Shown here in pieces: positions 34,338 through 44,373 of a DNA stretch of 64,000 nucleotides (within the stretch, counting starts at the first letter, position 1; every line of letters starts with the position of its first letter). Source of the stretch: Taibaiella chishuiensis (GTDB taxonomy: Bacteria; Bacteroidota; Bacteroidia; Chitinophagales; Chitinophagaceae). The stretch is taken from assembly GCF_003014535.1 (NCBI RefSeq), contig NZ_PYGD01000012.1, forward strand, positions 62,001 through 126,000, given 5' to 3'. The translations under genes were made by a program, and so were the position numbers. Below the pieces are notes generated by a model, which was not told the DNA's origin, searched no databases, and saw only the letters and a program-made list of their open reading frames with translations.

Positions 34338-37300
34338 ATGAAGCAAATTTTTACAATTGTTCTCCTCTTATGGTCGGGCCTGGCAGCCCGGGCACAATTG
34401 GCCAAAGCCCCGGCACAGCTGGCCCTGGCGAATAGGGATATAGCGTTGCAGGCAGGGCTGGGCGGCCTGGAAGAAAAAGTGCGGTCTATGCCGAAAACGG
34501 AGGCCGGCACCATCCTGTACCTGCAATTCCATATGCCGCCCGACCGCGGCAAATTGCAGGACGCAGGTATTATACTCCAGGATTATGTACAGCACAATAC
34601 CTATACCGCTTTTTGTACACCGCAGGCACAGGTGGCCCGCCTGCAGCAGTTTGCCGTAACGGCCTGGGCGCCTATGCAGGCAGACGATAAACTCAATATG
34701 CTGTTGCGCGACCCGGCAGGGCAGGAGGCGCAGCAGGTACTGCTGGTATCGGTAGTAAAGCCTTCAGGCGCAGCGGCGCTTAATGCCGCCCTGCCCGGCC
34801 TGGGCGGCAGGCTTAGTGTAGAGCAGCCCTGGAGCAAACAGGACCTTTGGCAGGTCGAAATGCCTTATGCCCGTATCCGCGAACTGGCCGCTGCGGGTTT
34901 CGTAAGGTATATCAACCCGAAAATGATACCGCAGCCGATGAATACCGAAGCCGAAGCCTTTACCAATACCGCCGTGGCCCGGCAACCCATTGCCCTTGGC
35001 GGCCACAACCTCCATGGCGAAGGCGTGATCATGGGGGTGGGCGACGATTCCAATCCTACCCATATCGATGTGATCGATCGTTTAAGAGGCTTCAATCCGC
35101 TGGTCTCCAGCGACCATGGTTTTCATACGGCCACTACCGTTGTAGGCGGTGGTCTTAAAGACGAGTATTTTAAAGGCTTTGCGCCCAGGAGCAATGTGAT
35201 CTCCGATTACTTCAGCCAGATCATCTCCAACGCGGCCACCTACCGCAGCGATTTTGATATGGTCGTATCCAATAACTCCTACGGCAATATTCTTAAAAAC
35301 TGCGCCTATGCGGGTACCTACGATGCCTATTCGCAGTTTACCGACCAGCTGATGCGCGATGTGCCCGACATGCTGCATGTATTTGCTTCGGCCAACGATG
35401 GCAATATGACCTGTACGCCTTATCCTACGGGTTATGCAACGGTTACGGGTTCTTTCTCCACGGCGAAAAATGTACTGACCGTAGGCGCTGTAGGCAAGAG
35501 CCGCGAGCTGCTGAGCAGTTATACCTCGCGTGGCCCCGTAAAGGACGGCCGTATGAAACCCGAGATCACGGCAGTAGGCTCCGCTTTATTTTCCGGTATA
35601 CAGAACAACAACTATGGTCCCGGTTACGGTACCAGTATGGCCTGTCCGAATGTAACCGGCGCTGCCGGCCTCTTGTACCAGCGTTACCGCCAGTTGCACG
35701 GCAACCAGAACCCGGCCAATGTGCTGATCAAAACCTTATTGATGAACGGCGCCAGCGACCTGGCTACGCCCGGTCCCGACTATGCCTATGGCTTCGGCCT
35801 GCTCGACCTGGGCCGTTCGCTGACTATGCTCGACAGCAACCGCTATTTTTCCAACACCATCAACACTACCCAGGAGCAGACCTATACCGTAACCGTGCCG
35901 CCCAATACGGCGCAGGCCCGGTTTATGATCTGCTGGAACGACCCTGCAGTAGCGCCTTTGACGGTATCGACCCTGGTTAACGATCTCGATCTTGCTGTGG
36001 TTACCCCTGCAGCTGCTACGGTATTGCCCTGGATACTCGATGCCACCCCCTCGGCGGTAACTGCACCGGCGGTAAGAGGCTTCGACCGGGTGAATAATGT
36101 AGAGCAGGTAACGATCGATAACCCGGCAGCCGGTAATTATACGCTTAAAGTAAAAGGTTTTAATGTGCCCGAGCCCAACCAGCAATATGTAGTGGCTTAC
36201 GATTTTCAGAAAGTGGGCATTACCCTGCAATATCCTTTCGGGGGAGAATCGCTCGTGGCGGGCGATTCCATGATCGTATACTGGGATGCTTCGCCGGGCA
36301 GCAATACCTTTGCTCTTTCGTTCTCTGCCGATAACGGCGCCAGCTGGACGCCGGTAAATGCCAGTATACCGGCCAACCAGCGTTTATATACCTGGTACCC
36401 GCCGGCGGGCCTGGCTTCCGACCAATGCCTGGTGCGGCTTAGCCGCAATGGTACCACGCAGCAGGAACAAAGCAAAGCCTTTATCCTGGCCGGACGTCCG
36501 GCTGCAGTGCTCAACCCTGTGGCCGAGCAATGCCCGGGCAGCGTTAAGCTAAGCTGGGCGCCGGTTACGGGCGTTAGTAATTACCAGGTATACCTGAAGC
36601 AGGGCAGCGAAATGTTGGCGGTAGCTGCCTTAACGGGTAATACGTATACCTTCAAAAACCTGTCGCACGACTCTACCTATTGGGTGGCTGTAGCCCCCCT
36701 GGTCAATGGTAAGCCGGGTATGCGTTCGGTGGCGCTGAGCCGGCAGCCAGCAGATGGTAGCTGTACGGGACTTACCCCTCATGGCGACTTAAGCCTGGAA
36801 GCTATTACAGGGCCGCAAAGCGGCCGCGAGCTTACCAGCACTTCGCTCACCATCGCGGCCAACCGTATGCTGCGGGTTAGAGTAGGTAACTACGACGGAC
36901 AGAACGCCGCGGATTACCGTATCGCCTACCAGCTCGATAACGCCGCCTGGGTAAGCCAGGCCTTTACCGATGTGATCAATGCAGGCGGTACCCGCGTGCT
37001 GGATATTGCCGACCTGGGAGCGCTTGCGGTTACAGGCAACCATACGCTTAAAGTTGCGGTAGTAAACCAGGCGCTGACCGATCCGGTGCCGGGCAACGAT
37101 ACCCAGGTTGTCGTGATCAAACAACTGGCTAATCCTGCGATAGGACTGGGCGGCGGGTATACCGAAGACTTCGAAAATGCAGCCGGTCTCGATATCATGG
37201 GCAAGGGCATGATCGGCATCGACGGCGCCGATCGCTGGGACTTTACACAAACCAAACCTTTCGGCCGTATCCGCAGCTTCGTCAACAGCGATATCTCTAT

Positions 37301-39695
37301 ACAGGGCAACCGTTCGCTGAGTATGGATAACAATAATAATCAGCGTTTCGATATTGCCGGCAGTAGTTTCAATACGGCTACAGGCACCTTTAACCTGGCT
37401 GGTTATAATCCTGCTGGTTGGGAAGTGCGTTGCGAGTTTGACTACATCATGCATGGCGTACCTAAGTTCGATACCGGCAACCAGGCTTGGGTACGGGGCA
37501 GCGATACCGATCCCTGGATACCGCTTTATGCCTACCAGATCGATACCACAAACCTCGGCGTGGTACGCAATTCGGGTTCTTTGTCGCTTACCGATATCCT
37601 GCTCGCAGCGGGGCAAACCTTCTCTTCGTCTACCCAGATCCGCTTCGGGCAGTACGATACCTCGCTGATTGCGGCAACCTATTTCGGTAATGGTTTTACC
37701 ATGGACAATTTCAAACTCTACACGGTTACCGATGATGTAAGCCTGTTGTCTATAGATTCAGTATACCACTATAATTGCGCGCTCAGCAGCACGTTGCCGG
37801 TGCGGGTTTCGGTAGTAAACGGGGTAAATTATACCATACATAATATCGCCGTATCGTATAAGATCGGCAACCTGCCTGCGGTTACCGAAATGATCGATTC
37901 CATTGCCGGTAAGGATACGCTGAGTTATACGTTTATACAAACGGCAGATCTCTCGGCCACGACTACCTTCGATGTATCGGCCTGGGTAAATGTGCCTACT
38001 GATACCTATCATCTCAACGACAGCCTGATGCATGTGCAGGTCATCAACCAGCCGATGATTGCCGCGTTTCCTTATCTCGAAAATTTTGAACAGGACAACG
38101 GGTTCTATTTTACCGAAGGTGTAAAAAGCAGCTGGGCCTATGGTACCCCGGCATCGCCGCGTATCAGTCATGCGGCCAGCGGCAGCAAAGCCTGGAAGAC
38201 CAACCTGCGCGGCAATTACAACAGCGTCGAGCGCTCTTACCTGTACTCTCCCTGCTTCGACATCAGCAGCCTGGCCAACCCGACCCTGAGCTTCCACCTA
38301 GCTACCGACCTGGAAGGCGCTACCGATACGTCTTACTTCGATATCGCCTATGTGGAATACAGTAATAACGGGTATACCTGGAACCGGCTGGGCGCCGCAG
38401 GACAAGGCACCAACTGGTACAACAGTACTTTTGCCGGGGGCTGGGCCAAAGAGGGCGAAACCTATTGGCATGTAGCCACGATAGGCTTACCCAAAACGGG
38501 CAATACCATCTCGTTCCGCTTTGTACTGGTATCCGATCCGGGTAAGGAACTGGAAGGCATTGCGATCGATGATATTCATATCTACGACCTGCAACGCCCG
38601 ATCTTCGACCAGGAGGCATTCCCGGCGGCGATAAGCCAGAATGCCGGACCGGCGCAGGTTCTGGACTTTACCAGTGGTAATGCCATCGGGCTTAACCTGC
38701 GCAACGGCGCTTCTACACTGGGATCGGTTACGGTACAGGCATACAAGCATACCGACTACATCAACGACGACAGCACCCAGTATTTCCTGCCCAAGAACTT
38801 TACGGTGCAAACTGCGAATGCGCCGGGCGACAGCGTTACCCTGCGTTTCTTCGTGCCCGACCAGGCGATGCGTACCGTAAGGGAAGACCAGGTATGCTAC
38901 TCCTGTAGCAGCAGGCCCGTAGAGGTGCAGCAGTTGGGCATTACCAAATACGACGATCCCGACAAGCAAAAAGAAAACAATACCCTGGCCGACAATACAG
39001 GGGGGACTTATTCCTTTATCACCCGCGATAAGATACGTTGGGTGCCTTATGATATCGGCTACTATGCGGAAGTAAAAGTGAAGTCGTTCTCCGAATTCTG
39101 GTTTAATGATGGCGGTCCGAACCACGACCAGGTCCTGTCTTCCAATCTTTTTGATTTTACGGCCTCGCATTACGGCAAGCGTCATGCCCTGTTGCAATGG
39201 AGCTCGCAACTGGACGGGCAGACGGTGAAGTATGACATCGAACGTGCAGATCCTTCCATGAACTTCGAAAAGATAGCCACGGTAAACAGCGTAGCACAGA
39301 ACGGTCATGCTTATAGTTATATCGATACGCCGTCTATCGTTGCGCCGGTGGTTTTCTACCGCCTGCAATACCAGTTGCAGGATGGCAGCCTGTTGTACAG
39401 CCTGGTGCGCAGGCTTGATTTCAGCGAGGTTGGCGGTACGGTAAATATCTACCCTAACCCGGTACGCAATGGCGTGTTGAATATCGAGTGGTTTAAAGGC
39501 AACAGCGAGGCTATAGACTGGCGCCTGAGCAATGTAAGCGGCCAGACGATCAATGTGGGCCGGATCGAGTACGATCTCTACAACGGGCATTATACCCTCG
39601 ACCTGAACCAGTTTGGTTTATCGGCAGGCGTATACCTGCTGAAGCTCAACAGTGGCCGCGAACACTGGGAGTTCAAGGTCGTGTATTATCACTAA
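34338..39695 (+). CDS. Giant secreted S8 (subtilisin) peptidase with T9SS sorting domain
   Basis: 1785 residues. A signal peptide (cleavage near ARA-QL) is followed by a propeptide and a subtilisin domain (about 210-500): Asp in MGVGDDSNPTHID (D236), His in SDHGFHTATTVVGGG (H260) and Ser in GTSMACPNVTG (S433). The Asp and His surroundings deviate from the usual DTG and HGTHVAG but the residues are present. A proprotein-like beta domain, a fibronectin-III-like domain (near 730-800), several beta-sandwich/MAM-like modules and a type A T9SS C-terminal sorting domain (about 1700-1785, with YPNPVRNGVLNIEW and GVYLLKLNSG) follow. It should be exported by T9SS to the surface or medium. It is the only large gene in its region. 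Confidence 0.95.
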   Translation: MKQIFTIVLLLWSGLAARAQLAKAPAQLALANRDIALQAGLGGLEEKVRSMPKTEAGTILYLQFHMPPDRGKLQDAGIILQDYVQHNTYTAFCTPQAQVARLQQFAVTAWAPMQADDKLNMLLRDPAGQEAQQVLLVSVVKPSGAAALNAALPGLGGRLSVEQPWSKQDLWQVEMPYARIRELAAAGFVRYINPKMIPQPMNTEAEAFTNTAVARQPIALGGHNLHGEGVIMGVGDDSNPTHIDVIDRLRGFNPLVSSDHGFHTATTVVGGGLKDEYFKGFAPRSNVISDYFSQIISNAATYRSDFDMVVSNNSYGNILKNCAYAGTYDAYSQFTDQLMRDVPDMLHVFASANDGNMTCTPYPTGYATVTGSFSTAKNVLTVGAVGKSRELLSSYTSRGPVKDGRMKPEITAVGSALFSGIQNNNYGPGYGTSMACPNVTGAAGLLYQRYRQLHGNQNPANVLIKTLLMNGASDLATPGPDYAYGFGLLDLGRSLTMLDSNRYFSNTINTTQEQTYTVTVPPNTAQARFMICWNDPAVAPLTVSTLVNDLDLAVVTPAAATVLPWILDATPSAVTAPAVRGFDRVNNVEQVTIDNPAAGNYTLKVKGFNVPEPNQQYVVAYDFQKVGITLQYPFGGESLVAGDSMIVYWDASPGSNTFALSFSADNGASWTPVNASIPANQRLYTWYPPAGLASDQCLVRLSRNGTTQQEQSKAFILAGRPAAVLNPVAEQCPGSVKLSWAPVTGVSNYQVYLKQGSEMLAVAALTGNTYTFKNLSHDSTYWVAVAPLVNGKPGMRSVALSRQPADGSCTGLTPHGDLSLEAITGPQSGRELTSTSLTIAANRMLRVRVGNYDGQNAADYRIAYQLDNAAWVSQAFTDVINAGGTRVLDIADLGALAVTGNHTLKVAVVNQALTDPVPGNDTQVVVIKQLANPAIGLGGGYTEDFENAAGLDIMGKGMIGIDGADRWDFTQTKPFGRIRSFVNSDISIQGNRSLSMDNNNNQRFDIAGSSFNTATGTFNLAGYNPAGWEVRCEFDYIMHGVPKFDTGNQAWVRGSDTDPWIPLYAYQIDTTNLGVVRNSGSLSLTDILLAAGQTFSSSTQIRFGQYDTSLIAATYFGNGFTMDNFKLYTVTDDVSLLSIDSVYHYNCALSSTLPVRVSVVNGVNYTIHNIAVSYKIGNLPAVTEMIDSIAGKDTLSYTFIQTADLSATTTFDVSAWVNVPTDTYHLNDSLMHVQVINQPMIAAFPYLENFEQDNGFYFTEGVKSSWAYGTPASPRISHAASGSKAWKTNLRGNYNSVERSYLYSPCFDISSLANPTLSFHLATDLEGATDTSYFDIAYVEYSNNGYTWNRLGAAGQGTNWYNSTFAGGWAKEGETYWHVATIGLPKTGNTISFRFVLVSDPGKELEGIAIDDIHIYDLQRPIFDQEAFPAAISQNAGPAQVLDFTSGNAIGLNLRNGASTLGSVTVQAYKHTDYINDDSTQYFLPKNFTVQTANAPGDSVTLRFFVPDQAMRTVREDQVCYSCSSRPVEVQQLGITKYDDPDKQKENNTLADNTGGTYSFITRDKIRWVPYDIGYYAEVKVKSFSEFWFNDGGPNHDQVLSSNLFDFTASHYGKRHALLQWSSQLDGQTVKYDIERADPSMNFEKIATVNSVAQNGHAYSYIDTPSIVAPVVFYRLQYQLQDGSLLYSLVRRLDFSEVGGTVNIYPNPVRNGVLNIEWFKGNSEAIDWRLSNVSGQTINVGRIEYDLYNGHYTLDLNQFGLSAGVYLLKLNSGREHWEFKVVYYH

Positions 39696-39714
39696 TCCTC
39701 TATCTTAACAATGC

Positions 39715-39749
39715 AAACAGCCATGCTTCATAAAAAAGCATGGCTGTTT
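39715..39749. terminator. Bidirectional terminator
   Basis: A perfect 14-bp stem (39715-39728, 39736-39749) with a 7-base loop, 20 bases past the subtilase stop. It also lies 25 bases past the end of the first small secreted paralog on the minus strand. Confidence 0.85.
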
Positions 39750-39773
39750 CGTTATCGGCTCCGGTTGCCGTTA

Positions 39774-40154
39774 CTAAAAAAATATTAGTGTGAGGTTACC
39801 GGCAGCATTATATAAGAAGTTCCAGCAGAACGGTGTGCCGCCATTGCAGGCCGGCGAAGTTCCGGATGTGGCGGAGCAGCCGTTAAACACGCCATTGCCG
39901 ACATAAACGGGGTTCAGATAGCTTGATGTAACGTCGAAGGTAACACTGGAAAAGGTACCCGATGGCGGCGCCGAAGGATTGGCAACATTGGCCGGGCTGG
40001 CAAAGCTGGTATTGCCGGGTGGCGCCGAGAAAGCGCCTCCCTGGGTAATACCGTATATGGTACAGCCGGTCGTGTTTACAATCGTGAGCGAATTGCCTGA
40101 AGCTGCTGTTGCCAGGCCCAGGACCAGCAAGGAACCGAGTATTGTTTTTTTCAT
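39774..40154 (-). CDS. Small secreted protein, tandem paralog A
   Basis: 126 residues with a signal peptide (cleavage near ASG-NS). The mature part of about 105 residues has an N-terminal CTIYGITQGG and a core SPANVANPSAPPSGTF shared with its two neighbours, three to five cysteines, and a C terminus ending LTLIFF. The ending in aromatic residues and the alternating pattern suggest a beta-rich fold. I know no family for it; the start (IVNTTGCTIY) faintly resembles small beta-sandwich proteins. It is the promoter-distal member of the cluster, separated from paralog B by 71 bases. Confidence 0.85.
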   Translation of the reverse strand: MKKTILGSLLVLGLATAASGNSLTIVNTTGCTIYGITQGGAFSAPPGNTSFASPANVANPSAPPSGTFSSVTFDVTSSYLNPVYVGNGVFNGCSATSGTSPACNGGTPFCWNFLYNAAGNLTLIFF

Positions 40155-40225
40155 TGCAGGCTGTTTTTTACGTGCTCCTGTCTCTACAACAAAGTATGGA
40201 TGTTATAAAGAACCGCAGTATTGGG

Positions 40226-40597
40226 TTAAAAGAAAATAAGCACAATGTCGCCGTTGCTGGTGTTTATATTCCAGTTGTAACAATACTGGATGCCGTTGCA
40301 ATCCAGTTGTCCACCAGTGCAGCTGGGCGCCGACGCGTTTACAAATACCGGGTTGAGGAATGCCGGCGTATAATCGAAGGTAACCCCGGTAAAGGTGCCA
40401 GAAGGCGGAGCCGCAGGATTGCTTACATTGGCCGGGCTGGCATAGGTCGTGGTGAGCTGGCCGGGCACGGTGATCATGCCGCCCTGGGTGATCCCGTAAA
40501 TCGTGCAGGCATTGATGTTCATTACGGTTAATTTGTTGGCGTTGGCCATCGAAGCGGCGCCGAGCATAAGGCCGGCGGCTATCATTACTTTTTTCAT
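40226..40597 (-). CDS. Small secreted protein, tandem paralog B
   Basis: 123 residues with a signal peptide (cleavage near ANA-NK). It shares CTIYGITQGG and SPANVSNPAAPPSGTF with A and C, has VTFDYTPAFLNPVFV, and ends GDIVLIFF. Similarity continues at DNA level: the 17-mer CATTGGCCGGGCTGGCA occurs in both A and B on the plus strand. It lies only 17 bases downstream of paralog C, so B and C are probably co-transcribed. Function unknown; secreted to periplasm, surface or medium. Confidence 0.85.
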   Translation of the reverse strand: MKKVMIAAGLMLGAASMANANKLTVMNINACTIYGITQGGMITVPGQLTTTYASPANVSNPAAPPSGTFTGVTFDYTPAFLNPVFVNASAPSCTGGQLDCNGIQYCYNWNINTSNGDIVLIFF

Positions 40598-40614
40598 CAG
40601 GATATTTTTGGGGG

Positions 40615-41004
40615 TTAGAAGAAGAGCATAACAATGTCGTAATTGGGTGCGGCGCCTACGTTCCAGGATACGGTAAAGGCCTGGCTGTTGTTACAGGCCG
40701 GGAATACGCCTGCTGTGGCGCTACTGGCGCTAAGCGGGCCGCCGGTACCCACGTACATGCCTACCGTGGTAGCCGGGAAAAGGTCGATCTTGGCGCCGCT
40801 GAAAGTGCCCGATGGCGGTGCGCCCGGGTTGCTGATATTAGCCGGGCTGGCATAAAATGTATTGCCCGGAGGCACGTTTACAAAACCACCTTGTGTGCTC
40901 AGCGCGTAGGTACAGTTGGTGAGGTTGATGTAGGTGCAGGAGTTGGCGCTGGCAGCGGTTCCTATGCCCAGTAACAGGCTGGCTGCGATAAGGATCTTTT
41001 TCAT
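40615..41004 (-). CDS. Small secreted protein, tandem paralog C
   Basis: 129 residues with a signal peptide (cleavage near ASA-NS). It is the most diverged of the three: CTYALSTQGG replaces CTIYGITQGG, but YASPANISNPGAPPSGTF and the IVMLFF end are retained. It is first in the minus-strand run. A near-consensus GAATTTTG element lies about 30 bases upstream of its start, just after the terminator of the GNAT operon. Function unknown. Confidence 0.85.
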   Translation of the reverse strand: MKKILIAASLLLGIGTAASANSCTYINLTNCTYALSTQGGFVNVPPGNTFYASPANISNPGAPPSGTFSGAKIDLFPATTVGMYVGTGGPLSASSATAGVFPACNNSQAFTVSWNVGAAPNYDIVMLFF

Positions 41005-41042
41005 GTTTTAAATTTTGCAGGTTTGGTTAACCACAAAATTCA

Positions 41043-41077
41043 AATAGCCCAGGGGCATATTATGCTCCCGGGCTATT
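41043..41077 (-). terminator. Terminator of the GNAT operon
   Basis: Outer stem AATAGCCC / GGGCTATT (41043-41050, 41070-41077) with an inner GGGGCAT/ATGCTCC stem. On the minus strand it is followed by TTTGAATTTTG. It lies 62 bases past the GNAT gene stop and just upstream of paralog C. Confidence 0.75.
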
Positions 41078-41138
41078 GGCGGCTGTAGTTATTTATGCGG
41101 GTATTTCCCGGCGGGTGGAACCGGGGCTGTATCTCTTG

Positions 41139-41570
41139 TCAGATGGAGATTTCGAATACTTTCTGTTCTTTCTTTTCGTGGAAACCGAGGCCGAGGTAAA
41201 AGCGATGTGCCCCATCGCGGATTACGTTGCTGCGCACTTTCAGTATATGGATACCCTGTTCGAGGCACCAGGCGTGTACCGCCTGCACCAGGATCCTGCC
41301 GGCGCCCTGTCCGCGGTTATTGCTATCTACTACCAGGCCGCCGATCTCGGTAAAGGCCGCCGACTCTATCCTGCGGGTCTTAAAACCATGTATCCAGCCA
41401 CAGACCTGGTTTGCAGCATCCAGGGCCACAAAGGCACAGTCGTCGTTACTATCCAGTACTGACTGTATATAAGCGGTCGTATCGGCCAGCGTTTGCGGGT
41501 AGCCCAGCTGCTCCGACAGGCGGTTTACGGCTGCGGCGTCTGTAGCCTGCATGTTCCGGGTTTGTATCAT
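41139..41570 (-). CDS. GNAT family N-acetyltransferase
   Basis: 143 residues with the GNAT fold: N-terminal strands, acetyl-CoA-binding VVDSNNRGQGAGRILVQAVHAW (the R/Q-x-x-G-x-G/A loop around residue 75-85) and a C-terminal RFYLGLGFHEKKEQ. It acetylates an unknown amine substrate. It overlaps the upstream NTF2-like gene by 4 bases (ATGA), so the two are translationally coupled, and a terminator follows. It is cytoplasmic. Confidence 0.93.
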   Translation of the reverse strand: MIQTRNMQATDAAAVNRLSEQLGYPQTLADTTAYIQSVLDSNDDCAFVALDAANQVCGWIHGFKTRRIESAAFTEIGGLVVDSNNRGQGAGRILVQAVHAWCLEQGIHILKVRSNVIRDGAHRFYLGLGFHEKKEQKVFEISI

Positions 41571-42028
41571 TTTGCTTTGGCGCTAAATTGTGCTAAACGT
41601 TGTAAGGCCTGTTGCCGTACTTTATTTTTCAGGTAAGGACTCCAACCCAGCAGCAGCCCGGGCAGGCCCAATGCCTGCCGCGACCATTTCCAGAAATCGA
41701 AACGGTCGGTATGCCGGATGATTTTCCCGTCCCGGAATACAAAGCTGGCATCGACCTGGTTCAATACCTTATTGCCGGTTTTACTGAACACATACCGTGC
41801 ATCCCAGTGGGCGCTGCCGGTATCGCCCGCAGCCTGTACCTTGCTGAAGGTAAGGTGTAGCCCCGGGTTCACCAGCATACGCCACATATTGCAGGCATCG
41901 GCGCCTTTCAAAGGACCGAAGGCGGGATCTTCGAACTCGATATCCGGGTGGTAACAGGCGATCATACCCTCGGCATCGGCCCGGGCAAATGCCGTATAGA
42001 ATTGTTCGATCAATGCTTTTTCGTTCAT
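41567..42028 (-). CDS. NTF2/SnoaL-like protein
   Basis: 153 residues with the NTF2-like cone fold signature (FYTAFARADAEGMIACYHPDIEFEDPAFG at residues 10-40; AHWDARYVFSKTG and VDASFVFRDGKIIRHTDRFDFWKW later). Such proteins are small isomerases, dehydratases or binding proteins; the substrate is unknown. It is joined to genes on both sides by 4-base ATGA overlaps in a three-gene operon, which suggests one small metabolic or detoxifying pathway. Cytoplasmic. Confidence 0.9.
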   Translation of the reverse strand: MNEKALIEQFYTAFARADAEGMIACYHPDIEFEDPAFGPLKGADACNMWRMLVNPGLHLTFSKVQAAGDTGSAHWDARYVFSKTGNKVLNQVDASFVFRDGKIIRHTDRFDFWKWSRQALGLPGLLLGWSPYLKNKVRQQALQRLAQFSAKAK

Positions 42029-42300
42029 GGCTCCAATGTTTTTAACTGGTTGGCGATATGGCCCAGGGCATCGCGAAATGCAGGCGGGCTCAGCGGGTTA
42101 TCGAGGAATACGGCGTCTATAGCCGCATCATCATATTGTTGCATAAACCGGATCAGTTCGGCCGATTTATGAATATAGTCTGCTTCGCTCTCGCTGATCT
42201 TGGCCAGCATGCCAAAGCGCAATGCAAGGTCGGGATGGAAACGGCCGGCCTCGCCGAGGATAGCCTTATAGGTTTGTGGGCTGAGTTGCCTGGTATCCAT
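42025..42300 (-). CDS. Small unknown protein in the GNAT operon
   Basis: 91 residues from ATG at 42300 (MDTRQLSPQTYKAIL); a longer start at 42348 is not supported by a gap or conserved residues. The protein is helical and acidic (ESEADYIHKSAELIRFMQQY) without membrane segments. Family unknown. It overlaps the NTF2-like gene by 4 bases. It leads the three-gene operon 42300-41139, so it probably works with the NTF2-like and GNAT proteins. Confidence 0.75.
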   Translation of the reverse strand: MDTRQLSPQTYKAILGEAGRFHPDLALRFGMLAKISESEADYIHKSAELIRFMQQYDDAAIDAVFLDNPLSPPAFRDALGHIANQLKTLEP

Positions 42301-42387
42301 AATATGGTCGGTACGGCATTTGTATACAGGGCGCAGTACCTGCCGCAAAGATAGCCTTTATCGCAGGCTTCTGTTCTTATCACTTTT

Positions 42388-44103
42388 TTAAGGATGCCCT
42401 GTTACCCACAGGTCTTCCGGTTGTAGTTGCAGGTAAGGCGCCAGGGCCTCCGTACGGATCTGTTCGATCAACTGGTCCAGGTAGGCGGTATCTTTAATTT
42501 CTATTTCCGATACGGTAGCCTGTTTTACCCCGGCGGCAACGCTTTGCTCATATGCCGGTACATCTGTAAACAGGGCGTTAAAGTAATGTACTTCCTTATT
42601 TTGCATTTCGTAAGCCGGGCTATGGCTGTCGCTGCAGCCCGAATAGCGCGCAACCGTTGCGCCATTCCTGCTCACATGCAGGCTCCAGCTCATGCTGTAA
42701 GCTGCTCCTGGTGCTAGTTGTAGCCATGGCGTGGCTACGAAGGCGCCCTGCCGTTTGTAGTGTTGCTCCCTGCCTGCAGTCGTTACCGTTATATCCCATT
42801 CGAAGTTCAGGGGAGTAGTAGGGTAGCGGTATTCCCCCGAACCCTCAAACAGTTGAAACTGTTGCCTGTCGCGGTTATCGCGGGTGCTCACGATATGGAT
42901 CGTGTAGGGTAAGGTCTGGCCGTGTTGGCCGGGTAGGGTATTGTAATCCGCTGCCGGCGCCGTTTTGAGCAGGTTCATCCCGATTTTGCGATGGTTATCC
43001 TGTTCGGGATGCCGTTGCCAGATCTTTACATAATCTACCTCCATTTGTCCCAGTACACCGGGATGCAGTACACTATCCAGGCCGGCTTGCCGGTCTTCGC
43101 GGTTCAGCCCTGCCTGTTCATTGACCCGTGCCAGGAGGATCAGCTGGCTGGCCGATTTCGTGTTATAGGGATAACCATAACTGATGTAATAGTTAGCGCC
43201 CGGCTGAGGCTGGCATTCCGCGCCAACGGTCAGCTTGTAGTTGTGCCCGTTATAGACATAACCCTGGTCGCGGATGTATTTCCAGCGCCTGCCTGCCAGG
43301 TTGCCGTCCAGGTAGAAGCGTAATTCGTTATCATCCCATTCGCAGGTATAAGTATGCCAGTCGTCCTGGCGGTGTGCGTTACCGCCAGGCAGGTTGCGCC
43401 ACCAGCCCTGGCCTGGAAATTTATTGCTCCAGGCGGCATCATAGGGCAGGTTATACGGGTTGGGCAGCGGCGGATTGGCCGAGGGGTCGGGGCCCCAGGC
43501 GTGGGTGCTGAAGGTATTGCGCCGCTGGTTGCCGCCGCTAAGCCCGCCACCCCAGGCCTCGGCAATATCGATTTCGTTTACACCGAGGCCATGCCAGGTC
43601 CACAAGGCGCACCAGGCGCCCTTAAACACCGGGAAGCGGAGGCGCGCCTCGAAGCGTCCGTTATTATAGGCATTGTCGGTGCCATCGGGCAGGTTACGGT
43701 ACGTGGCAATCTGCGCTGCGCTTACCTGCTTTTTGAAGGCTACCGGGTTGGGGCAGTCCGTGCAGGACCAGTTGCCGGTTTCGCGGCGTATAACCAGTTT
43801 ACAGGTGCCTTCGCTTACCACTACATTTTTGTCGCGCAGGATATAGGGATTGTCATACCAGGTGCGGGCGCCGTTCCAGTGCTCATGGTCGCCGCCGGCC
43901 ATACCGGGGTAGGAGCCGAAGGTGATCCATTTACTGCGGTCTATCTGGTCACCATCGAAGTCATCGGTAAATACCAGTTGCCAGGATGCGGTATCGCAAA
44001 GATTCGTGCCCGCCGGAAACTGTTGCGGCGGTAGCCAGCCACTTTGCGCATGCAGTGCGGACATCATGCCTGAACAGGCCAAAAGTAACAGCGATCTTCT
44101 CAT
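42388..44103 (-). CDS. Glycoside hydrolase family 16 protein
   Basis: 571 residues from ATG at 44103 (MRRSLLLLACSG), which gives a proper signal peptide; an upstream start at 44352 is rejected because it would bury the signal. Residues 50-370 form a GH16 beta-jelly-roll with the catalytic motif VNEIDIAEAWG (E-x-D-x-x-E near residue 176-181), and FYLDGNLAGRRW. GH16 enzymes cleave beta-1,3/1,4-glucans, agars or related polymers; the precise substrate is unknown. The last 200 residues are a second, beta-rich domain of unknown type. It is secreted. Confidence 0.92.
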   Translation of the reverse strand: MRRSLLLLACSGMMSALHAQSGWLPPQQFPAGTNLCDTASWQLVFTDDFDGDQIDRSKWITFGSYPGMAGGDHEHWNGARTWYDNPYILRDKNVVVSEGTCKLVIRRETGNWSCTDCPNPVAFKKQVSAAQIATYRNLPDGTDNAYNNGRFEARLRFPVFKGAWCALWTWHGLGVNEIDIAEAWGGGLSGGNQRRNTFSTHAWGPDPSANPPLPNPYNLPYDAAWSNKFPGQGWWRNLPGGNAHRQDDWHTYTCEWDDNELRFYLDGNLAGRRWKYIRDQGYVYNGHNYKLTVGAECQPQPGANYYISYGYPYNTKSASQLILLARVNEQAGLNREDRQAGLDSVLHPGVLGQMEVDYVKIWQRHPEQDNHRKIGMNLLKTAPAADYNTLPGQHGQTLPYTIHIVSTRDNRDRQQFQLFEGSGEYRYPTTPLNFEWDITVTTAGREQHYKRQGAFVATPWLQLAPGAAYSMSWSLHVSRNGATVARYSGCSDSHSPAYEMQNKEVHYFNALFTDVPAYEQSVAAGVKQATVSEIEIKDTAYLDQLIEQIRTEALAPYLQLQPEDLWVTGHP

Positions 44104-44216
44104 TGTATTCCCGGGTATTTGCTGAAAATACAAAAATACAGATTGACAAGCCTTTATCCTTATCCATGCTCCCTGCGCTGCTGCTGCCCACGGGCAAAGG
44201 GCCGCTGCTTTCCCCC

Positions 44217-44247
44217 TTGATTTAAGCGGGATAATGTCGTAAATTTG
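44217..44247 (+). promoter_or_regulatory. Promoter of the icmF-like gene
   Basis: TTG at 44217-44219, 20 bases, TAAATTTG at 44240-44247, fitting the Bacteroidota consensus. The leader of about 120 bases holds two small hairpins (CCCGGA/TCCGGG near 44252-44277 and CCGGT/ACCGG near 44333-44345) but no B12 box. Confidence 0.7.
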
Positions 44248-44373
44248 CAAACCCGGAGTGGGTATTCCTCTTCCGGGACAGGTAATTTGTATAAAATATT
44301 TAATTTTTAAATATATTTTTTGTGCCAGGCCGGTCGTATTACCGGTTTGCATTTAAGAAGCCTAAATTTTATT

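What the first reader, a model, noticed from the sequence alone, without database searches (positions are those of the whole stretch)
39774..41004. Tandem array of three small secreted paralogs of no known family
Each has a signal peptide, about 100 mature residues, a C-T-I/Y motif near the start, a shared SPANxxNPxAPPSGTF core, and an end in LIFF or LFF. They arose by duplication and are diverging. They lie between the giant subtilase and a GNAT operon. Terminal aromatics hint at insertion in the outer membrane or at a beta-sandwich fold. Such arrays often encode surface, effector, adhesive or bacteriocin-like proteins.
Basis: partly seen in the sequence, partly recalled or inferred. Interest (0 to 1): 0.6.

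Follow-up and report, generated by a model that had tools for sequence, protein, structure and literature searches.

The report
Charge-poor small secreted bacterial protein family
Three neighbouring genes make small exported proteins that belong to a large, undescribed, strikingly charge-poor protein family of some Chitinophagaceae bacteria, perhaps built like known membrane- or sugar-binding proteins; what they bind, if anything, is unknown.

Summary
Three intact minus-strand genes (41004-40615, 40597-40226, 40154-39774) encode exported paralogues, 47-56% identical in the mature part, between a T9SS subtilase and a GNAT gene. No match over a cut-off was found in Pfam, NCBIfam, PHROGs, PADLOC or PDB sequences.

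They are a small part of a larger family: 46 profile matches at 25 places in this genome, and 44 genes confirmed with a mature-domain profile in the stretches fetched. It is patchy in its bacterial family (18-20 of 294 genomes). No match lay outside that family in samples of 298 (order) and 395 (phylum) genomes; counts are lower bounds.

Members are poor in charge (mean 5% D/E/K/R against 20% in 29 other exported ORFs here) and carry cysteine pairs that occur together. A related subfamily is under purifying selection in two congeners. Three congeners lack the array at this locus.

AlphaFold2 models (a relative, pLDDT 83.5; gene A, 70) are nine-stranded beta-sheet proteins. Their likenesses, none significant, are mostly to aegerolysins and Cry34Ab1, then thaumatins, actinoporins and fungal lectins. 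Best reading: secreted binding modules for lipid or glycan. The outer-membrane hint and a T9SS link are not supported.

The parts
40615..41004 (-). gene A, 129 aa exported protein; mature part about residues 21-129; first gene of the unit
   Evidence: AlphaFold2 model of the mature part, pLDDT 70, pTM 0.64
40226..40597 (-). gene B, 123 aa exported protein; starts 17 bases after gene A's stop
   Evidence: closest relative gene C (99* in the tree)
39774..40154 (-). gene C, 126 aa exported protein; one charged residue in the 106 residues counted as mature
39715..39749 (.). strong hairpin between the subtilase stop and gene C's stop; possible terminator for one or both
   Evidence: fold of 39705-39765 minus strand: -25.4 kcal/mol, z -5.5, 0 of 200 shuffles as good; the consensus terminator scan did not list it
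41044..41076 (.). hairpin between the GNAT stop and gene A's start; possible terminator of the GNAT unit
   Evidence: fold of 41030-41085 minus strand: -26 kcal/mol, z -4.1, 0 of 200 shuffles as good; not listed by the terminator scan
41005..41034 (-). short leader of gene A with ACCAAAC, a word that recurs before family members
   Evidence: ACCAAAC in 8 of 44 family upstreams against 0 of 116 control upstreams, CCAAAC 11 of 44 against 1 of 116; nominal p 2e-5 and 2e-6, not corrected for the many words tried
34338..39695 (+). neighbour, not part: subtilase with a T9SS sorting domain
   Evidence: TIGR04183 E 1.6e-7, 31.2 bits over cut-off 23; adjacency of clusters to such genes is what chance gives

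Best explanation
The trio is a lineage-specific copy set of a large, undescribed family of small exported proteins of some Chitinophagaceae. SHOWN by sequence: an N-terminal signal-like stretch; a mature domain of about 100-130 residues with very few charged residues; one near-universal cysteine pair and two subfamily-specific pairs that occur together; dozens of paralogues in this genome, in clusters and singly, with no constant partner gene in the loci examined. SUGGESTED by models: a nine-stranded beta-sandwich most like aegerolysins/Cry34Ab1 and, further off, thaumatins, actinoporins and fungal fruit-body lectins. INFERRED mechanism: after Sec export and disulphide formation in the periplasm the domain stays at, or leaves, the cell surface by an unknown route (no T9SS sorting domain was found) and works as a stable binding module for a ligand such as a membrane lipid, LPS or a neutral polysaccharide. 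Each paralogue would have its own target, which would explain why many diverged copies are kept.
For: Family size and clusters. Cysteine pairs in 55 aligned members: main pair 50 both, 3 neither, 2 second only; second pair 15 both, 40 neither; third pair 9 both, 46 neither. Charge: 44 own members mean 5.1% (0.9-10.2%) against 20.2% (sd 6.4) in 29 control exported ORFs of the same loci. Selection: dN/dS 0.07-0.28 in 10 orthologous pairs of the collinear arrays of G001 and G002, a different subfamily from the trio. Fold: the model of the Taibaiella relative (pLDDT 83.5, pTM 0.76) aligns from first to last residue with Cry34Ab1 (Z 6.6, 88 of 101 residues, 3.5 A, 19% id), pleurotolysin A 6.2, RahU 6.1, ostreolysin A 6.0, Nakanori 5.1, FraC 5.0, IP-1A 4.9; the weaker model of gene A gives a similar list (Cry34Ab1 5.6, ostreolysin 5.5, RahU 5.0). 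No constant partner. No T9SS domain.
Against: Every structural Z is under 8, the level below which the tool says a match may be only a common arrangement; Foldseek gave no PDB E under 0.001. The top VIA row in both runs is an unrelated protein, the Vps13 adaptor-binding domain (Z 6.9 and 6.7), and PepT1/PepT2 domains also score. No sequence link to aegerolysins: hhalign probability 0.2% against one bacterial aegerolysin sequence, no PF06355 match in this genome. That aegerolysin is 25% charged. Loops are not more variable than strands in the 17-row alignment (entropy 1.47 against 1.59), so ligand-loop diversification is not seen. No MACPF match in the genome. Family members from other genera are less charge-poor (mean 8.9%, up to 17.7%), and three of the 29 control ORFs are charge-poor too (4-9%). 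No ligand, location or expression data.
Confidence: 0.4

Rival explanations
1. Structural surface or matrix protein: the charge-poor, probably disulphide-locked domains assemble into a coat, fibre or biofilm matrix, and the copies are dosage and variant forms.
For: Charge depletion and 57% N/T/S/G/P/A content are usual in self-assembling extracellular proteins (recalled, not tested); many copies without a constant partner; purifying selection in one subfamily.
Against: Very patchy occurrence (at most 20 of 294 genomes of the family; congener G003 has none) is odd for a structural coat; divergence is high (paralogues outside the trio are 21-33% identical to gene B); no usher match in the genome, so probably not chaperone-usher pilins.
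Confidence: 0.25
2. Antagonistic secreted proteins (toxin or membrane-attack component) aimed at competitors, prey or predators, as several proteins of similar fold are.
For: Fold likeness to Cry34Ab1, IP-1A, TDH, actinoporins and aegerolysins; patchy, expanded, locus-specific gain.
Against: No MACPF match in the genome (the Cry35-type partner was not sought), no recurring immunity-like neighbour, slow evolution between congeners in one subfamily; none of the likenesses is significant, and fold likeness shows no function.
Confidence: 0.2
3. Periplasmic or surface inhibitors or receptor decoys (for example against phages, proteases or bacteriocins).
For: Many diverged exported copies; one thaumatin-like hit is an enzyme inhibitor (TLXI).
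Against: No PADLOC match for the trio; no PHROGs match for the trio and three relatives; no recurring neighbour.
Confidence: 0.1
4. Small outer-membrane beta-barrels.
For: Nine strands and an FF end in the window trio.
Against: C-terminal F in only 28 of 81 members, N in 31; the listed fold likenesses are not outer-membrane barrels apart from two low-ranked usher rows; the conserved cysteine pair would link the first loop with the loop before the penultimate strand (link inferred).
Confidence: 0.03

Closest known systems
Aegerolysins (PF06355: pleurotolysin A, ostreolysin A, RahU) and Cry34Ab1/IP-1A
   Same: Size, beta-sandwich aligned from end to end, best-ranking coherent structural group (about Z 4.6-6.6)
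   Different: No sequence match; signal-like N-terminus (one fungal aegerolysin is reported to lack a signal peptide, PMC9505663, passage seen); conserved cysteine pairs; about 5% charge against 25% in one bacterial aegerolysin; no MACPF match in the genome
Thaumatin-like proteins and MoHrip2
   Same: Secreted beta-sandwich; best Foldseek rows for gene A (E 0.03-0.3)
   Different: Most are about twice as long, TM-scores about 0.3, E not significant; 0 of 55 members matched the Pfam family
NttC of Legionella (6sjt)
   Same: 108-residue exported beta-protein with a disulphide, function unknown; Z 5.5, 83 residues, 3.6 A for the relative's model (passages of PMC7325957 seen)
   Different: Different disulphide (helix to strand 5), T2SS substrate, found by fold only; not in the listed rows for gene A
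DUF6759 (PF20545)
   Same: Weak matches of three family members, E 0.0031, 0.077 and 0.029 (where shown, over the first strands)
   Different: Two were seen with bits (13.6 and 15.0) far below the 27-bit cut-off, the third without bits; profile of 94 positions; could be chance

Membership tests
Aegerolysin (PF06355) | match to the Pfam profile over its cut-off | tested here: not met
   No PF06355 match in the own genome at 0.001, while the search rang in 1 of 148 phylum genomes; none among 55 members at E up to 1
Aegerolysin (PF06355) | aegerolysin beta-sandwich fold | tested here: inconclusive
   Best-ranking coherent group in VIA for two models, Z 5.0-6.6, all under 8; no significant Foldseek match
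Aegerolysin (PF06355) | MACPF partner in the genome (only some aegerolysins have one) | tested here: not met
   No PF01823 match in the own genome at 0.01; the control rang in Bacteroides ihuae
Aegerolysin (PF06355) | Cry35-type (Toxin_10) partner | not tested
   not searched; no recurring neighbour in 21 loci
Aegerolysin (PF06355) | binding to sphingolipid/sterol membranes | not testable with these tools
   needs purified protein
Thaumatin (PF00314) | match to the Pfam profile | tested here: not met
   55 members scanned, none at E up to 1
T9SS cargo | C-terminal sorting domain (TIGR04183) | tested here: not met
   NCBIfam scan of 55 mature members, no match at 0.01; the subtilase next door does match
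Outer-membrane beta-barrel | C-terminal aromatic signature | tested here: not met
   Met by the trio itself, not by the family: terminal F in 28 of 81, N in 31 of 81
Chaperone-usher pilins | usher in the genome | tested here: not met
   No PF00577 match in the own genome; the control rang in E. coli
The new family defined here | N-x-[TS]-x-C near the start; C, then W, before a final hydrophobic strand | tested here: met
   In 55 aligned members N invariant, both Cys and W in 90% or more; the profile was built from these members, so this is by construction

The most novel reading that the evidence does not exclude
A bacterial repertoire system: one genome keeps more than forty diverged, charge-poor, disulphide-locked secreted sandwiches of aegerolysin/lectin-like fold, each a dedicated binder of a different lipid or glycan, gained and lost locus by locus, comparable to lectin or effector repertoires of eukaryotes.
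Probability: 0.25. Interest if true: 0.7.

Novelty: new variant of a known kind. Interest (0 to 1): 0.45.

Why it matters
A family with dozens of copies in one genome and no name in the libraries searched is a sizeable blind spot in the secretomes of these bacteria. Its poverty in charge, its co-occurring cysteine pairs and its possible membrane/sugar-binding fold make its function directly testable with small domains. If they bind lipids or glycans they would also be useful probes.

Tried and rejected
T9SS link: the trio lies beside a T9SS subtilase, and arrays in Taibaiella sp. KBW10 (two) and Edaphocola flava (one) also lie beside T9SS proteins. Tested against the 150 listed sorting domains (a capped list) plus the window's own: 3 of 25 clusters within 2 kb, 2.6 expected; 4 within 5 kb, 5.2 expected; 10 within 10 kb, 9.0 expected. 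Rejected. (In that script the coordinates were copied and the length of contig C17 was my guess.)

Bacteroidota promoter element (TAnnTTTG, recalled): in 3 of 44 upstreams of 200 nt against 6.1% of random windows: no signal; some upstream windows in that call were anchored at a wrong start. Loop diversification: not seen. Sigma-70-type promoter scan: none; terminator scan: one + strand site inside gene B, fewer than in shuffles. Rfam 38000-43000: none. PDB by sequence: the profile of 23 full-length members gave ten rows at E 0.13-4.3, seven of them matched at the signal-peptide end and three antibody chains; the profile of 55 mature domains gave none. Viral fold library: no E under 0.001; best row 0.036, an uncharacterized viral protein. 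Plasmids, gene A only: none. Genome contigs with the trio: none of 30 stretches confirmed.

Papers: (listings and abstract starts; some found none), plus passages of PMC9505663 and PMC7325957. Nothing on this family was seen in these; that is no proof that it is not in print. Matches inside long ORFs in G197 and G115 are probably false; G115's ORF was left out of the tree. Rows with E above 1e-6, and identical or contained sequences, were left out of the tree of 110, which has few columns and 48 open forks of 107. Near-identical members (over 60% identity) were thinned from 81 to 55 for alignment A3.

Full report
OBSERVATION. The window holds three intact genes on the minus strand, A (41004-40615), B (40597-40226) and C (40154-39774). 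B and C are the closer pair (56% of mature residues; 99* in the tree); A is 48% and 47% from them and 53% over 97 columns from a single copy elsewhere in the genome. The trio is one side of a branch with support 78 only. A and B are 17 bases apart, B and C 71 (coordinates). Hairpins lie on both sides of the trio (z -5.5 and -4.1), so it may be its own transcription unit; the consensus terminator scan did not list them.

FAMILY. In Pfam the three match nothing even at E 10 except a lipoprotein-signal model at 0.3 for A. PADLOC gave none for the trio and PHROGs none for the trio and three relatives. In NCBIfam, of 23 full-length members three families were each matched weakly by one member (best 0.015; gene B 0.29), and 0 of 55 mature members matched at 0.01. 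Of 55 mature members scanned in Pfam at E up to 1 the best row was DUF6759 at 0.0031 in one member. A profile of the three finds 25 matches at E up to 10 in the own genome. A profile of 23 members finds 46 at E up to 0.01 (it includes the signal peptide, so some matches are N-terminal only). They fall in 25 places, ten with two to five matches and 15 single. An iterated mature-domain profile confirms 81 ORFs of 570 in 27 stretches (the window plus 26 fetched), 44 of them in the own genome's 21 stretches; not every own place was fetched. Congeners G001 and G002 carry arrays of 14 members each, collinear in their ten reciprocal-best pairs; the third, G003, gave no match.

DISTRIBUTION. The profile of the trio alone hits, at E up to 1e-6, 4 of 294 genomes of the family: this one and three of one other genus. 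With the profile of 55 mature domains: 20 of 294, 12 of 101 genera, at E up to 0.001, of which G197 and G115 lie in long ORFs and are doubtful; 4 of 298 in the order sample and 2 of 395 in the phylum sample at 1e-4, all in the same family. These large searches scored at most 11-15 candidates a genome, so misses are likely.

LOCUS HISTORY. The subtilase is present in all four genomes of the genus (56-58% identity in the other three). In G001 and G002 the interval between it and the GNAT gene holds a 214-217-residue protein of another kind; in the stretch fetched from G003 no GNAT relative was found. No family ORF better than E 0.28 lies in the three stretches of 15-16 kb. So this array was gained here in the lineage of this genome, or lost in the others. 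In the tree the own-genome members outside the window need 8 changes of label against 33.2 in shuffles, while most G001 and G002 members pair with each other; shuffles ask only whether a label is clustered.

SELECTION. Ten reciprocal-best pairs of G001 and G002 have dN/dS 0.07-0.28. They belong to another subfamily than the trio. In the trio dS is saturated for two pairs; for B-C dS is 1.93 and dN 0.37.

CHEMISTRY. Mature domains of 44 own members average 5.1% charged residues, with 57% N/T/S/G/P/A; 29 other exported ORFs of the same loci, chosen by a crude rule, average 20.2% and 40%. Three of these controls are themselves small and charge-poor. Fifteen members from other genera are less extreme (8.9%, 4.1-17.7%). 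Cysteine pairs occur together in 55 members: 50 both/3 neither/2 one; 15 both/40 neither; 9 both/46 neither; relatedness inflates such counts.

FOLD. Gene A: pLDDT 70, pTM 0.64, the other four models at 56-60. Taibaiella relative: pLDDT 83.5, pTM 0.76, four of five models above 80. Foldseek: no significant PDB match. Its top rows are thaumatins for the first and Cry34Ab1, TDH, a thaumatin-like allergen, PepT1 and IP-1A for the second. VIA: the Vps13 adaptor domain first in both, then Cry34Ab1 and aegerolysins, with thaumatins, Nakanori, actinoporins, TDH, lectins and (second model) NttC and PepT2 lower. That two models of different members agree on many proteins of one broad fold class is suggestive only; the two share the same 17 sequences in their alignments, every Z is under 8, and a profile comparison with one aegerolysin sequence gave nothing.

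CONTEXT. No non-family neighbour recurs in more than two of 21 own loci (152 ORFs). No MACPF and no usher match in the genome. Clusters lie next to T9SS cargo no more often than chance. A short leader word, ACCAAAC, recurs (8 of 44 against 0 of 116, uncorrected), which could be shared regulation or shared descent.

VERDICT. A real, undescribed (in the libraries and papers searched), expanded family; most likely secreted binding modules of a known general fold. Shown: signal-like start, family, cysteine co-occurrence, charge poverty, purifying selection in one subfamily, absence from the locus in three congeners. Inferred: disulphides, fold class, ligand binding, surface or medium location.

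Noticed in passing
L073 4291-11159 (G001) and L074 4355-11281 (G002): Tandem arrays of 14 family members each, mostly of the ALFI[NT]NNT type, collinear between two congeners.
   Followed up: partly
L018:8417-8839, L018:10241-10672, L063:3125-3571: Other small exported-type proteins with 4-9% charged residues near family clusters that the family profile does not match; poverty in charge may be wider than this family.
   Followed up: no
own genome, contig C1 about 763-783 kb: Seven T9SS sorting-domain matches within 20 kb; the genome-wide list stopped at 150.
   Followed up: no
39692-41142: The interval between subtilase and GNAT gene is a variable spot: three-gene array here, an unrelated 214-217-residue gene in two congeners, other gene order in the third.
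   Followed up: partly
42391-44352: Protein with a weak kappa-carrageenase match (E 4.8e-5, 22.7 bits against a cut-off of 350), perhaps a glycosidase; no relative in the congeners' stretches.
   Followed up: no
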